A stretch of 64,000 nt of DNA from contig MWJO01000032.1 in the NCBI GenBank assembly GCA_002027195.1, forward strand, positions 1 to 64,000. Direction: 5' to 3'. Shown piece after piece: positions 51,558 to 58,176 of this stretch; within the stretch, counting starts at the first letter, position 1, and each line of letters opens with the position of its first letter. The notes under the pieces were generated by a model, which saw only the letters and a program-made list of their open reading frames with translations, made no database searches and was not told the origin of the DNA. The stretch comes from Streptomyces sp. GKU 895 (GTDB lineage: Bacteria; Actinomycetota; Actinomycetes; Streptomycetales; Streptomycetaceae). The translations under genes and the position numbers were made by a program.

Positions 51558-52542
51558 ATGAACCGCACCGCACGGGCGTTCTGGCTCAACAGGCCGGGTG
51601 AGGGCGGGATACGGGAGGTCACCCTTCCGGCCCCCGCCGCGGACGAGGTGCTGGTCCGCGCCCTGTGGTCCGGCGTCAGCCGCGGCACCGAGACCCTCGT
51701 CTTCCGCGGCGGGGTCCCCGCGAGCCAGCACGCGGCCATGCGGGCACCCTTCCAGGAGGGCGAGTTCCCCGCCCCCGTGAAATACGGCTACCTCAGTGTC
51801 GGAGAGGTCGAGGAGGGGCCGGCGGAGCTGCTGGGGCGCACGGTCTTCTGCCTCTACCCGCACCAGACGCGGTACGTCGTCCCGGCCGCCGCCGTCACCG
51901 TCGTACCGGACTCCGTGCCCGCCGAACGCGCCATCCTCGCCGGCACCGTGGAGACCGCCGTCAACGCCCTGTGGGACGCGGCGCCCCTGGTCGGGGACCG
52001 GATCGCGGTGGTGGGCGGCGGGATGGTCGGCTGCTCGGTGGCCGCGCTGCTGGCCCGCTTCCCCGGCGTACGGGTGCAGCTCGTCGACGCCGATCCGGCC
52101 CGCGCCAAGACCGCCGAGGCGCTCGGCGTCGACTTCGCGCTGCCGCGGGACGCGCTCGGGGAGTGCGACCTCGTCGTGCACGCCAGCGCCACCGAACAAG
52201 GGCTCACCCGCGCGCTGGAACTCCTCACCGCCGAGGGCACCGTCCTCGAACTGAGCTGGTACGGCGACCGGCAGATCAGCCTCCCGCTCGGCGAGGCCTT
52301 CCACTCCCGCCGCCTCGTCATCCGCTCCAGCCAGGTCGGCACCGTCTCCCCGGCCCGCCGCGCCAGCCGCAGCTACGCCGACCGGCTCGCCCTCGCCCTC
52401 GAACTGCTCGCCGCCCCGTCACTCGACGCGCTCATCACGGGGGGAAAGCGTGTTCGAGGAGTTGCCGGCGGTGATGCCGAAGCTCGCGGCGGGGGAGATT
52501 CCGGCCCTTTGTCACCGCATCAGGTACGACAAGAGCGCCTGA
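51558..52542 (+). CDS. Medium-chain dehydrogenase/reductase without zinc ligands (frameshifted)
   Basis: About 327 aa after repair. Rossmann segment [21 protein letters not shown] near residue 152; N-terminal [18 protein letters not shown] and [12 protein letters not shown] belong to the zinc-alcohol-dehydrogenase-like MDR superfamily. The Cys/His catalytic and structural zinc ligands are not evident. ATG 51558 is preferred to 51552 because AGGAGG is 6 nt upstream. A G6 run at about 52441-52446 has one G too many; without it the protein ends [20 protein letters not shown] and HRIRYDKSA at TGA 52542. First gene of the cluster, presumably oxidising or reducing a sugar or pterin side chain. Confidence 0.8.
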
Positions 52543-52658
52543 CCTGAGAAAAGAGTGAGATCGGGCTGAACACGGGGAAGCGAAGAGCCGTACTACACGG
52601 CATCCCGGCGGCGATCAGGCCGAGGGGATCAGACGCGCCGCACCTGGAGGGTCGTCCG

Positions 52659-53057
52659 TTGTTCAGTGTCACCGTCCGCGATCACATCATGATCGCCCAC
52701 AGCTTCCGCGGCGAGGTCTTCGGACCCGCGCAGCGCCTGCACGGAGCGACGTTCCTCGTGGACGCCACCTTCCGCCGGGAACAGCTGGACGACGACAACA
52801 TCGTCGTCGACATCGGACTGGCCACCCAGGAGCTCGGCGCCGTCGTCGCCGAGCTGAACTACAGAAACCTCGACAACGAGCCCGACTTCGCCGGGATCAA
52901 CACCTCGACGGAGTTCCTCGCCAAGGTCATCGCCGACCGGCTCGCCGAGCGCATCGAGAAGGGCGCGCTCGGCGAAGGGGCCCGGGGCATCGCCGCGATC
53001 GGCGTCACGCTCCACGAGTCGCATGTCGCGTGGGCGAGTTACGAGCGTGCGCTGTGA
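52659..53057 (+). CDS. 6-pyruvoyl-tetrahydropterin synthase/QueD-fold protein with altered active site
   Basis: 132 aa from TTG 52659 (GGAGGG 7 nt upstream). The T-fold is clear: [53 protein letters not shown] and [14 protein letters not shown]. Against E. coli QueD (KCGRLHGHSF, LDHHYLND) the catalytic Cys becomes Ala, the third zinc His becomes Ala (HGA for HGH), and the catalytic His becomes Asn (LDN). The Glu in LHES is kept. It probably binds a pterin-like compound but may not run the normal reaction. Its stop overlaps the GT4 start. Confidence 0.82.
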
Positions 53058-54244
53058 CCGACACGACCCTGGAGAAGACCGCGGCACCGTCGCTCGGTTA
53101 CGTGCCCGTCCAGCACGCCACTCTCAAGAACGCGGACATCATCCCCATGTCCCTGAGCTCCGTGCACTTCGTCATGCCGGGCGGGGTCGACGACCCGGCG
53201 GCCCCCAGCGGCGGCAACGCCTATGACCGGCGGGTCAGTCTGGACCTGCCCGGCTTCGGCTGGCAGGTCCACAAGCACGCGGTCGACGGCGAGTGGCCCC
53301 GGCCCGGTGCCGCGGCCCGCGCCGAACTCGCGCGCATCCTGCGGGAGTTCCCGGACGGTACGGTCGTCCTGCTGGACGGCCTGGTGGCCTGCGGGGTCCC
53401 CGAGATCGTCGTCCCGGAGGCGGAACGCCTGCGGCTCGCCGTCCTCGTCCACCTTCCGCTCGGCGACGAGACCGGCCTGGACCCCCTGCTCGCCGCCGAG
53501 CTGGACGCCAAGGAACGTGCCGTTCTGCGTGCGGTCCCCGCGGTCGTCGCCACCAGCGACTGGGCGGTCCGCCGCCTCGTCTCCCACCACGGCCTGGCCC
53601 CCGACCGCGTCCATGTCGCCGCCCCCGGCGCCGACATCGCGCCGCTCGCCTCCGGAACCGACGGCGTCTCCCGCCTGTTGTGCGTCGCCGCCGTCACGCC
53701 CCGCAAGGGACAGCACCGGCTGATCGAGGCGCTCGCGACGGTACGGGACCTGCCGTGGAGCTGCGTGTGCGTCGGCGGCCTGGGCCAGGACCCCGAGTAC
53801 GTCGGCCGACTCCGGGCCCTGATCGCGAAGCACGGCCTGGAGCACCGGCTGGAGCTGGCCGGACCGCAGGCCGGCGCCCAGCTCGACGCCAGCTATGCCG
53901 CCGCCGACCTGATGGTCCTCACCTCCTACGCCGAGACGTACGGCATGGCGGTCACGGAGGCCCTCGCCCGCGGCATCCCGGTCCTCGCGACCGACGTCGG
54001 CGGCCTGCCCGAGGCGGTCGGACGCGCCCCCGACGGGGGAGTGCCCGGCATCCTCGTCCCGCCGGAGGACCCCGCCGCCCTCGCGGCCGAACTGCGCGGC
54101 TGGTTCAACGAGGCGGACGTACGACGCCGGCTGAAGGCGGCTGCCCGGAGCCGCCGGGCCGCCCTCGACGGCTGGGCGACCACGGCCCGCAGCCTGGCCG
54201 GAGTACTGGGCCGACTGCCGAACGAACCCAGGAGGGCGGCATGA
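53054..54244 (+). CDS. Glycosyltransferase family 4
   Basis: 396 aa from GTG 53054, overlapping the previous stop (GTGA). GT-B fold: N-terminal [18 protein letters not shown] with [10 protein letters not shown], then [19 protein letters not shown] and, for nucleotide-sugar binding, [27 protein letters not shown]. The acceptor is unknown. Its place between a PTPS-like gene and a methyltransferase suggests glycosylation of a pterin-like or small polar product. Overlaps the next gene as ATGA. Confidence 0.9.
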
Positions 54245-56843: not shown

Positions 56844-57475
56844 GCGGACATGCCCAGAGTGAGCAGATGACGACGGTCGTCGGCGACGAAATCGGAGGTC
56901 TCATAACCGGGTCGGACGAATTCGGGATGAGCGTGCAGAAGGATGGAGGTCTCGATTTCCCCCGCGTGCATGTCGGTGAGCAGAGACGTGACCACCCCCG
57001 CCCGTTCGCACGCCGACTCCCAGTCCTCCGCCGCCGGGAAGAGTGCCATTTTCTCGCCGCGGGAGGAGGATTCCTGAACGACGTTGCCCAGTACGTAGTT
57101 TCCGCCGTGTCCGTTGACGACGACCAGGGCGTCGACGCCGGAACGCCGGAGTGAAGCCGCTATGTCCCGTATCACCGAGTGAAGGGTCACCGAGGAGATG
57201 CTGACGGTCCCCGCCCAGGCCGCGTGCTCGTGCGAGCAGGAGATCGTCACCGGGGGAAGGAGGTGCACCGGGTACGCCGCGGCGATCTCCCGGGCGATGG
57301 CACAGGCGACCAGGGTGTCGGTCGCCAACGGCAGGTACGGGCCGTGCTGTTCGAAGCTTCCGACGGGGAGCACCGCGACCTGTCGTGAGACATTCGCGCC
57401 CCGCGTCCGTACGTCCTCCGTGGTGTCCGCCGGCAACGGACCGTATGCCGCCGACCGCGCTTGCGAATCACTCAT
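56699..57475 (-). CDS. Creatininase-family amidohydrolase (ArfB/MftE-like)
   Basis: 258 aa. Metal site: LPVGSFEQHGPYLPLATD (Glu/His/Asp, about residues 36-53), NGHGGNYVLG (about 120) and MHAGEIETS (about 168). This family includes creatininase, the archaeal formamide hydrolase ArfB that deformylates the GTP cyclohydrolase III product, and MftE. It is divergent from a GTP cyclohydrolase II gene with only 41 bp between the starts, so an ArfB-like deformylase acting on a purine-derived pyrimidine is the most attractive idea. No mftABC genes are present. Confidence 0.85.
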   Translation of the reverse strand: MSDSQARSAAYGPLPADTTEDVRTRGANVSRQVAVLPVGSFEQHGPYLPLATDTLVACAIAREIAAAYPVHLLPPVTISCSHEHAAWAGTVSISSVTLHSVIRDIAASLRRSGVDALVVVNGHGGNYVLGNVVQESSSRGEKMALFPAAEDWESACERAGVVTSLLTDMHAGEIETSILLHAHPEFVRPGYETSDFVADDRRHLLTLGMSAYTDSGVIGRPSLGSAEKGKALLESLADAFGPYLSLFTSDGSGDSSRG

Positions 57476-57516
57476 TCTTTCACGGCCTTTCGTCTCTGCT
57501 TAGGAACTCGAGAATC

Positions 57517-58176
57517 ATGACAGACAAAATTGGCGTCCTCGGCAAGAAGTCCCCGCAGCGCACCGGCGTGGAACGCATAGTGAATGCCCCGCTGCCCACC
57601 GTGTACGGGCAATTCCGGGCGGTCGGCTACCTGGATCACGACCGCGGCGACGAACAAGTGGCCCTCGTCCACGGCGAGATAGGCACCGAGGACGTCCTCG
57701 TCCGGCTGCACTCCGAGTGCCTCACCGGTGACGCCTTCGGCTCCCGGCACTGCGAGTGCGGCGAGCAGCTCGACTCCGCGATGCGGGCCGTGGTCGCCGA
57801 AGGCAGCGGCATCGTCGTCTACTTGCGCGGCCACGAGGGCCGCGGCATCGGCCTGCTCGCCAAGCTCCGCGCGATGGCCCTGCAGGCGGAGGGCCTGGAC
57901 ACCGTCGAGGCGAACCTCGCCCTCGGCCTGCCGGTGGACGCCCGGGACTACGGCGTCGCCGCCGGCATGCTGCACGACCTCGGCGTGAACAGCGTCCGCC
58001 TGATGTCCAACAACCCCGACAAGCGGGAGGCGTTGGTACGGCACGGCATCGAGGTCACCGAGACCGTGCCGCTGCTGATCCAGCCGTGCGAGAGCAACAT
58101 CACCTACCTGCGCACCAAGCGGGAACGCCTCGACCATCACCTGCCCCATCTGGACGCGGTGGCCCACCTGTCCTGA
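57517..58176 (+). CDS. GTP cyclohydrolase II (RibA-type paralogue)
   Basis: 219 aa, single-domain RibA without the RibB half. Zinc Cys68, Cys79 and Cys81 lie in LHSECLTGDAFGSRHCECGEQL (21 residues with flanks), the GTP/catalytic segment is VVYLRGHEGRGIGLLAKLRA, and DTVEANLALGLPVDARDYG follows. Tyr102 aligns with E. coli RibA Tyr105. In a Streptomyces coelicolor paralogue a Met near this position was reported to stop the reaction at the formylated intermediate. Here Tyr is present, so complete deformylation is predicted. It stands with a creatininase-like gene and a PTPS-like gene, not riboflavin genes. Confidence 0.92.
   Translation: MTDKIGVLGKKSPQRTGVERIVNAPLPTVYGQFRAVGYLDHDRGDEQVALVHGEIGTEDVLVRLHSECLTGDAFGSRHCECGEQLDSAMRAVVAEGSGIVVYLRGHEGRGIGLLAKLRAMALQAEGLDTVEANLALGLPVDARDYGVAAGMLHDLGVNSVRLMSNNPDKREALVRHGIEVTETVPLLIQPCESNITYLRTKRERLDHHLPHLDAVAHLS

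What the first reader, a model, noticed from the sequence alone, without database searches (positions are those of the whole stretch)
51558..58176. Uncharacterised pterin-like biosynthetic cluster
GTP cyclohydrolase II, a creatininase/ArfB-like hydrolase, a PTPS-fold protein, an MDR dehydrogenase, GT4, a methyltransferase and a flippase-like membrane protein lie together; most are overlap-coupled. This is what one would expect for a GTP-derived, glycosylated, possibly exported metabolite. No riboflavin, queuosine or folate genes accompany it. A nearby CDP-alcohol phosphatidyltransferase could supply a lipid link.
Basis: partly seen in the sequence, partly recalled or inferred. Interest (0 to 1): 0.72.

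Follow-up and report, generated by a model that had tools for sequence, protein, structure and literature searches.

The report
Conserved GTP-derived pterin-like gene cluster
A gene cluster kept together in many soil bacteria appears to open GTP along an archaea-like vitamin B2 route and then divert the product into a sugar- and methyl-decorated, probably membrane-handled compound of unknown structure.

Summary
The PTPS-like gene is the ortholog of SCO6650 (PDB 3d7j). The GTP cyclohydrolase II (GCH II) has Met120, which from memory makes SCO6655 stop at the formylated pyrimidine FAPy. In 136 loci around PTPS-like genes, non-Tyr GCH II comes with the creatininase homolog (95 of 96; the 96th has it just outside the stretch). 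Tyr GCH II comes without it (14 of 14), with a RibD_C reductase instead. RibD_C is fused to GCH II in two genomes, overlaps the creatininase gene in two, and precedes MDR-PTPS in 18 of 18 held loci of a family of another class. Cluster GCH II sits in three places on its tree, most simply three recruitments. Best reading: GTP to FAPy to the diaminopyrimidine to its ribityl form, mirroring the archaeal Arf route, then diversion by MDR, PTPS-like, GT4 and methyltransferase. CDP-alcohol phosphotransferase and flippase-like proteins suggest a lipid link. The product is unknown and nothing was assayed.

The parts
50692..51513 (-). CDP-alcohol phosphotransferase (CDPOH)
   Evidence: PF01066 54 bits; catalytic motif D..DG..AR.{8}G...D...D intact (motif recalled); present in 94 of 100 loci
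51552..52547 (+). MDR-type dehydrogenase without conserved zinc-ligand cysteines, BchC-like; conserved frame changes near 52441
   Evidence: model and fold search of the L061 homolog
52659..53057 (+). PTPS-fold protein, ortholog of SCO6650; FGPA..LHG and YRNLD signature, no catalytic Cys
   Evidence: PF01242; PDB 3d7j 262 bits; signature in 136 hits
53054..54244 (+). GT4 glycosyltransferase; 4-base overlap with PTPS
   Evidence: PF00534 108 bits; 98 of 100 loci at E 1e-8 or better
54241..55549 (+). class I methyltransferase; 4-base overlap with GT4; repeat array in the N-terminal part; apparent frameshift near 55000
   Evidence: intact L061 homolog hits Methyltransf_25; L142 homolog model pLDDT 91.5 with a methyltransferase fold
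55755..56843 (+). flippase-like LPG_synthase_TM membrane protein
   Evidence: PF03706 113 bits; 91 of 100 loci
56699..57475 (-). creatininase-family hydrolase, proposed FAPy formamidase
   Evidence: PF02633 210 bits; residues E42, H44, D53, H123 and the HAGE.ET motif at least 99% conserved in 95 homologs
57517..58176 (+). GTP cyclohydrolase II with Met120 in place of Tyr
   Evidence: PF00925 225 bits; TIGR00505 226 bits, over cut-off; residue 120

Best explanation
The cluster runs a dedicated branch from GTP. (1) Met-type GCH II opens GTP to FAPy (2-amino-5-formylamino-6-ribosylamino-pyrimidinone 5'-phosphate). (2) The creatininase homolog removes the formyl group, giving the diaminopyrimidine APy. 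(3) A RibD_C reductase turns the ribosyl side chain into ribityl; it is encoded in the cluster in some relatives and elsewhere in the genome here. (4) MDR, PTPS-like protein, GT4 and methyltransferase convert this 2-amino-4-oxo-pyrimidine into a glycosylated, methylated pterin-like or ribityl-pyrimidine product. (5) In Actinomycetes, the CDP-alcohol phosphotransferase, flippase-like protein and sometimes a sulfatase-like membrane enzyme attach it to a lipid and/or move it across the membrane. Step 1 rests on recalled biochemistry of the ortholog. Steps 2 and 3 are inferred from covariation, fusion and operon structure. Steps 4 and 5 are inferred from family membership only.
For: Residue 120 is Met in 83 of 83 Streptomycetaceae loci with creatininase and non-Tyr (M/L/H/Q) in 12 of 12 further loci with creatininase. 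Of the 15 GCH II loci without creatininase in the stretch, 14 have Tyr; the 15th, L280 (Leu), has a 62% creatininase just outside the fetched stretch. A creatininase-family enzyme that deformylates FAPy is known in bacteria (BrbF, PMC9478397; abstract and passages). RibD_C: natural GCH II-RibD_C fusions in L273 and L275; creatininase stop and RibD_C candidate GTG start overlap by 4 bases in L144 and L140; RibD_C then MDR then PTPS in 18 of 18 held f18 loci (of 24 f18 genomes with hits), with GT4 and MT following in 7 of 7 longer stretches; the c8 type scores best against the APy-reductase model TIGR01508 (L134, L143). The 16 genomes of the set with the Met-type cluster but no in-locus RibD_C all hold a c8-like one elsewhere, against 8 of 20 negatives; so do 16 of 16 f89 cluster genomes. 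Cluster GCH II sits in three places on its tree. The PTPS-like anchor Glu is kept in 136 of 136 hits.
Against: No assay or metabolite data. Loss of Tyr has a single origin, so the many loci are not independent. G088 has a 60% creatininase ortholog but only Tyr-type GCH II. f2-family genomes (G157, G763, G826) have MDR-PTPS but no GCH II or RibD_C in the stretches fetched and no c8-like RibD_C. G030 has only MDR-PTPS at the locus. The creatininase scores highest against MftE, not ArfB, and passes no NCBIfam cut-off. The c8-type RibD_C is under the TIGR01508 cut-off. The MDR lacks conserved zinc-ligand cysteines, so polyol oxidation is not assured. The c8-like RibD_C of this genome sits in another locus and is itself split over two frames here. 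In 8 of the 16 f89 genomes its match runs across a stop codon, in 2 more it is in two pieces, and f89 had no negative control. In f89 GCH II and creatininase are mostly 5-13 kb apart. Two core genes look frameshifted in this assembly.
Confidence: 0.58

Rival explanations
1. Auxiliary riboflavin/F420 supply: the extra GCH II and creatininase only top up the ribityl-pyrimidine pool for flavins or F420, and the neighbours are unrelated.
For: GCH II, a formamidase-like enzyme and RibD_C are the first steps of riboflavin synthesis; BrbF is needed for riboflavin in Sinorhizobium (PMC9478397, abstract).
Against: No RibB, RibH or RibE family among the 20 window ORFs scanned. Tyr-type RibBA and a third GCH II exist in the same genome. 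The close cluster-type GCH II (68% identity or more) was found in 0 of 20 cluster-negative genomes examined and in 22 of 27 Streptomycetaceae positives. MDR-PTPS stay with RibD_C across two classes.
Confidence: 0.12
2. Two independent neighbours: a soluble pterin-type operon (RibD_C-MDR-PTPS-GT4-MT) beside an unrelated envelope-lipid set (CDPOH, flippase, sulfatase-like).
For: The f18 operon shows only the five soluble genes in the neighbours called; CDPOH is fused to the sulfatase-like domain in L264, so the envelope proteins form their own unit.
Against: CDPOH hits in 94 of 100 and 29 of 36 loci and flippase hits in 91 of 100 and 30 of 36, in shifting orders; in L267 the flippase and sulfatase-like genes share a run with RibD_C and GCH II.
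Confidence: 0.22
3. The creatininase homolog is not a FAPy formamidase but a peptidase or amidase acting later on the product, as MftE does in mycofactocin.
For: Highest NCBIfam score is MftE, 133 bits against a 172-bit cut-off; ArfB gives only 40. G088 keeps an ortholog without a non-Tyr GCH II.
Against: Near-complete association with non-Tyr GCH II, and divergent placement beside it in 83 of 83 Streptomycetaceae loci holding both; no close ortholog in the six of 14 Tyr-type cluster genomes searched whole.
Confidence: 0.2

Closest known systems
S. coelicolor SCO6655 GCH II (Spoonamore 2006, recalled; seen only in the reference list of PMC3509567) and SCO6650 (PDB 3d7j)
   Same: PTPS-like protein is a clear ortholog (262 bits); GCH II has the Met120 recalled for SCO6655
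Archaeal ArfA/ArfB/ArfC start of riboflavin/F420 synthesis
   Same: Same proposed three steps: FAPy, deformylation, reduction of the 2,5-diamino intermediate
   Different: ArfA role taken by a GCH II homolog; creatininase homolog scores only 40 bits to the ArfB model; product appears to leave the flavin route
BrbF formamidase of Sinorhizobium and relatives (PMC9478397, abstract and passages)
   Same: Creatininase-annotated protein that deformylates FAPy
   Different: BrbF serves riboflavin; there the FAPy-making enzyme was undiscovered, here a candidate sits beside the creatininase gene; no direct sequence comparison was made
PTPS/COG0720 subfamilies I, II and III (PMC5041015, passages)
   Same: PTPS fold, Pfam PF01242, conserved Glu anchor
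   Different: None of the motifs CxxxHGH, CxxxxxHGH or ExxHGH; has FGPA..LHGA and YRNLD instead. Subfamilies IV to VI were not compared

Membership tests
GTP cyclohydrolase II | family profile over curated cut-off | tested here: met
   TIGR00505 226 bits against 206; PF00925 225 bits
GTP cyclohydrolase II | Tyr at the switch position of APy-forming enzymes (recalled) | tested here: not met
   Met120
GTP cyclohydrolase II | converts GTP to APy | not testable with these tools
   needs an enzyme assay
QueD / PTPS-I, -II, -III | motifs CxxxHGH, CxxxxxHGH or ExxHGH | tested here: not met
   Cys site is Ala in 134 of 136 hits (2 not covered); HGA in 131 of 136; TIGR03367 36 bits against 89
QueD / PTPS | pterin-anchoring Glu (role recalled) | tested here: met
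   136 of 136
ArfB / BrbF FAPy formamidase | curated ArfB profile | tested here: not met
   NF033501 39.8 bits against 180
ArfB / BrbF FAPy formamidase | genomic link to a (predicted) FAPy-forming cyclohydrolase | tested here: met
   95 of 96 non-Tyr GCH II loci, plus the 96th outside the stretch; one ortholog without such a partner, G088
ArfB / BrbF FAPy formamidase | formate release from FAPy | not testable with these tools
   needs an assay
MftE mycofactocin peptidase | curated profile cut-off | tested here: not met
   TIGR03964 133 bits against 172
zinc MDR alcohol dehydrogenase | conserved Cys ligands of the catalytic zinc (recalled) | tested here: not met
   no Cys is invariant or nearly so in 39 rows (most frequent Cys column 33 of 39, residue 319); weak alignments place Ser43 and Thr132 at the Cys sites; the His site was read by eye as Tyr80
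BchC | curated profile cut-off | tested here: not met
   TIGR01202 51.6 bits against 291
archaeal APy reductase (c8-type RibD_C of relatives) | TIGR01508 cut-off | tested here: not met
   131 bits against 186, yet the top NCBIfam hit of the L143 protein; best PDB matches of the L134 protein are 5xux (named only 'Conserved protein') and its variants, then 6p8c, a named APy reductase
riboflavin operon | RibB, RibH or RibE beside the genes | tested here: not met
   none among 20 window ORFs scanned
CDP-alcohol phosphotransferase | D..DG..AR.{8}G...D...D motif (recalled) | tested here: met
   found at residue 133

The most novel reading that the evidence does not exclude
A GTP cyclohydrolase I-independent route to pterins: RibD_C reduces C1' of the ribosyl-diaminopyrimidine and the BchC-like MDR oxidises C2', so the 5-amino group closes onto the ketone and gives a 7,8-dihydroneopterin phosphate. 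The redox pair would do what the Amadori rearrangement does in GCH I. The PTPS-like protein, GT4 and MT then tailor it, and the CDP-alcohol enzyme with the flippase-like protein turns it into a new class of envelope pterin lipid.
Probability: 0.17. Interest if true: 0.9.

Novelty: new variant of a known kind. Interest (0 to 1): 0.66.

Why it matters
If right, it gives a role to SCO6655 (an enzyme recalled as making an 'unfinished' riboflavin precursor) and to SCO6650 (a solved structure still labelled uncharacterized in the PDB), and it names the missing partners. It would show an archaeal-style split of the first riboflavin step serving a non-flavin metabolite across many actinobacterial families, with a predictive rule: loss of the GCH II Tyr goes with a creatininase homolog. 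The product would be a new GTP-derived metabolite, possibly a membrane-linked one, and a lab strain (S. coelicolor) is at hand to find it.

Tried and rejected
Queuosine, folate or biopterin reading: rejected because PTPS motifs I to III fail and the feeder is GCH II rather than GCH I. Riboflavin backup: disfavoured. Upstream GNAT/SBP5/MFS genes: 42, 46 and 43 of 100. f18 methyltransferase as ortholog: not shown; the f18 MT query matched only 8 of 106 loci, so it may be a different family. The methyltransferase fold search gave only generic class I enzymes, query TM-scores 0.37-0.55. The PTPS hits of L231, L232 and L233 are other PTPS types with no MDR called beside them and served as a contrast. 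Of the 84 phylum-wide hits many are such weaker types; only some were read. The unnamed families f18 and f89 could not be identified.

Literature: ten searches over the held open-access library listed no paper treating this cluster as a pathway; most subscription papers are not held. PMC2853524 mentions SCO6655 once, in an expression table (passage); PMC3610822 was seen only in a search listing.

A Fisher value for GCH II co-occurrence used 22 of 29; the Streptomycetaceae count is 22 of 27, so I give counts only. The other Fisher values there ignore shared ancestry and are not used as probabilities. The 36 further loci come from 35 genomes (G540 gave two). One search kept the best 80 of 554 relatives, so the named set leans to close Streptomyces. 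Only 20 of the 123 PTPS-negative genomes were examined as negatives.
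Full report
WHAT IS THERE. The window lies in an 8.3 Mb draft genome in 190 contigs. The 80 best named relatives at this locus are all Streptomyces. In order: CDP-alcohol phosphotransferase 50692-51513 (-), MDR 51552-52547 (+), PTPS 52659-53057, GT4 53054-54244, methyltransferase 54241-55549, flippase-like 55755-56843, creatininase 56699-57475 (-), GCH II 57517-58176 (+). PTPS/GT4 and GT4/MT overlap by 4 bases; the creatininase is antisense and divergent from GCH II. In MDR and MT the frame conserved in relatives changes near 52441 and 55000, which could be assembly error or decay.

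KNOWN PIECES. The PTPS-like protein matches SCO6650, PDB 3d7j, at 262 bits. From memory, and not from any held text: SCO6655 of S. coelicolor converts GTP to FAPy rather than APy because Met120 replaces a Tyr, and SCO6650 lacks PTPS activity. The 2006 paper was seen only in a reference list. The window GCH II has Met at 120.

CONSERVATION. PTPS-like hits were found in 27 of 150 genomes of the family, this one included, and in 59 of 394 of the class, 26 of 137 genera. Of the 15 loci without GCH II, six are short stretches and one (L111) has PTPS without the other genes.

THE SWITCH RESIDUE AND THE CREATININASE. In those 100 loci: Met with creatininase 83, Tyr without it 2, neither gene 15. I then fetched 36 more loci (35 genomes) of other genera: non-Tyr (L5, H4, M2, Q1) with creatininase 12, Leu without it 1, Tyr without it 12, no GCH II 11. 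The exception, L280, has a 62% creatininase a few kb beyond the fetched stretch. All other GCH II copies for which a locus was held, RibBA and the second stand-alone type, have Tyr. Six of the 14 Tyr-type cluster genomes were searched whole (G346, G688, G658, G756, G710, G176): no close creatininase ortholog (best 41%, partial). Ten of ten cluster-negative Streptomyces searched had none above 33%. Against: G088 has a 60% ortholog though its two GCH II copies are Tyr-type. In Streptomycetaceae the two genes are divergent neighbours (83 of 83); in f89 they mostly flank the cluster, 5-13 kb apart, and only in L249 are they adjacent. The tree shows loss of Tyr once (support 99/92; one change in 98% of bootstrap trees), so this is one old event kept in its descendants, not many events. 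The bacterial enzyme BrbF, annotated as a creatininase, deformylates FAPy (PMC9478397; abstract and passages), which makes the proposed role realistic.

THE HIDDEN PARTNER: RibD_C. In relatives a RibD_C reductase joins the cluster: beside GCH II in L134 and L136; beyond the CDP-alcohol gene in L141, L143, L145 and L146; downstream of the creatininase on its strand in L138, L139, L140, L142, L144 and L147, with a 4-base overlap of stop and candidate start in L144 and L140. Among the 36 further loci 16 have it, 12 of them with Tyr GCH II. In L273 and L275 it is fused to a Tyr GCH II. In an unnamed family of another class (f18) RibD_C, MDR and PTPS stand in this order in 18 of 18 loci held, of 24 f18 genomes with hits; a GT4-like gene follows in 17 of 18 (the 18th, L042, had no GT4 hit in its short stretch), and a methyltransferase in the 7 of 7 longer stretches read, fused to GT4 in G201 and G224. 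RibD_C is absent from the 80 named Streptomyces loci and the 16 f89 loci. There a c8-like RibD_C lies elsewhere: 16 of 16 in the Streptomyces set (57-61% identity) and 16 of 16 in f89 (51-68%). In 8 of the f89 genomes the match crosses a stop codon and in 2 more it is in two pieces; no f89 negatives were run. Cluster-negative genomes have a c8-like copy in 8 of 20. The six genomes with the creatininase-linked RibD_C have no c8-like copy. G157 lacks one and has MDR-PTPS with at most a weak GT4 hit; G030 has one elsewhere and only MDR-PTPS at the locus. The c8 type scores best against TIGR01508, the archaeal APy reductase model, though under its cut-off; its best PDB matches are 5xux and variants, then the named APy reductase 6p8c. 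In this genome the c8-like copy lies on contig C138 beside a Tyr GCH II and is split over two frames; in the homologous locus of G107 it is fused to a deaminase domain and adjoins a MarR regulator.

THREE PLACES ON THE TREE. Cluster GCH II falls with the stand-alone second type (SCO2687-like, label recalled), as the GCH II-RibD_C fusion, and as the non-Tyr clade next to RibBA. The simplest reading is three recruitments of one activity by one core (MDR-PTPS-GT4), which argues that the core uses the GCH II product. Caution: the tree is rooted at the midpoint, the fusion pair itself is weakly supported (86/55), and L275 is a long branch.

THE CORE ENZYMES. PTPS-like: first two His of the zinc site kept, third is Ala, catalytic Cys site is Ala, anchor Glu kept in 136 of 136, YRNLD a family signature (site roles recalled). 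f18 members keep all three His but not the Cys. MDR: model of the L061 homolog, pLDDT 87, closest in fold to secondary-alcohol and polyol dehydrogenases, but no conserved Cys for zinc. Its best NCBIfam model is BchC, under cut-off; BchC oxidises a secondary alcohol (recalled). f18 MDR scores best against IolM, then BchC, both under cut-off. CDP-alcohol enzyme: catalytic motif intact; in L264 a 771-residue protein holds its domain together with the sulfatase-like domain.

MECHANISM. Shown by sequence: families, switch residue, covariation, fusions, operons. Recalled: SCO6655 chemistry. Inferred: creatininase as FAPy formamidase, RibD_C reduction to the ribityl compound, diversion by MDR/PTPS/GT4/MT, lipid link. 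My most specific guess for the MDR, oxidation of C2' with ring closure to a dihydropterin, is the novel case at 0.17.

VERDICT. A conserved, mostly uncharacterised biosynthetic cluster whose first steps resemble the archaeal riboflavin start; a new variant of a known kind.

Noticed in passing
window 52438-52545 and 54986-55010: Apparent frameshifts in MDR and MT relative to intact homologs; assembly error or decay not resolved.
   Followed up: partly
window 54334-54532: 30-base repeat array (5.4 copies; also 90-base period) inside the N-terminal part of the methyltransferase gene.
   Followed up: no
window 58240-61605: Three collinear genes: DAO oxidase, AlaDh_PNT_N protein and saccharopine dehydrogenase; present in 40-45 of 100 loci, possibly a lysine-type module.
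   Followed up: partly
window 45587-50690: GNAT, SBP family 5 and MFS genes upstream, found in 42-46 of 100 loci.
   Followed up: no
L214 8161-10657 (own genome, contig C138); L216 7888-10448: Second Tyr-type GCH II locus with a c8-like RibD_C (split over two frames in L214); in L216 a MarR regulator and a RibD_C-deaminase fusion in reversed domain order.
   Followed up: partly
L220 9377-10823: GCH II next to a LigB-family dioxygenase in G030.
   Followed up: no
L264 7596-9911: Protein with a CDP-alcohol phosphotransferase domain and similarity to the sulfatase-like membrane protein, beside the cluster.
   Followed up: partly
L258 11483-14044, L268 11025-13496: MFS transporter and S-adenosyl methyltransferase (PF04672) between GT4 and MT in f89 genomes (Pfam read on L258).
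   Followed up: partly
L271 2775-9452: About 6.7 kb inserted between MDR and PTPS in G821.
   Followed up: no
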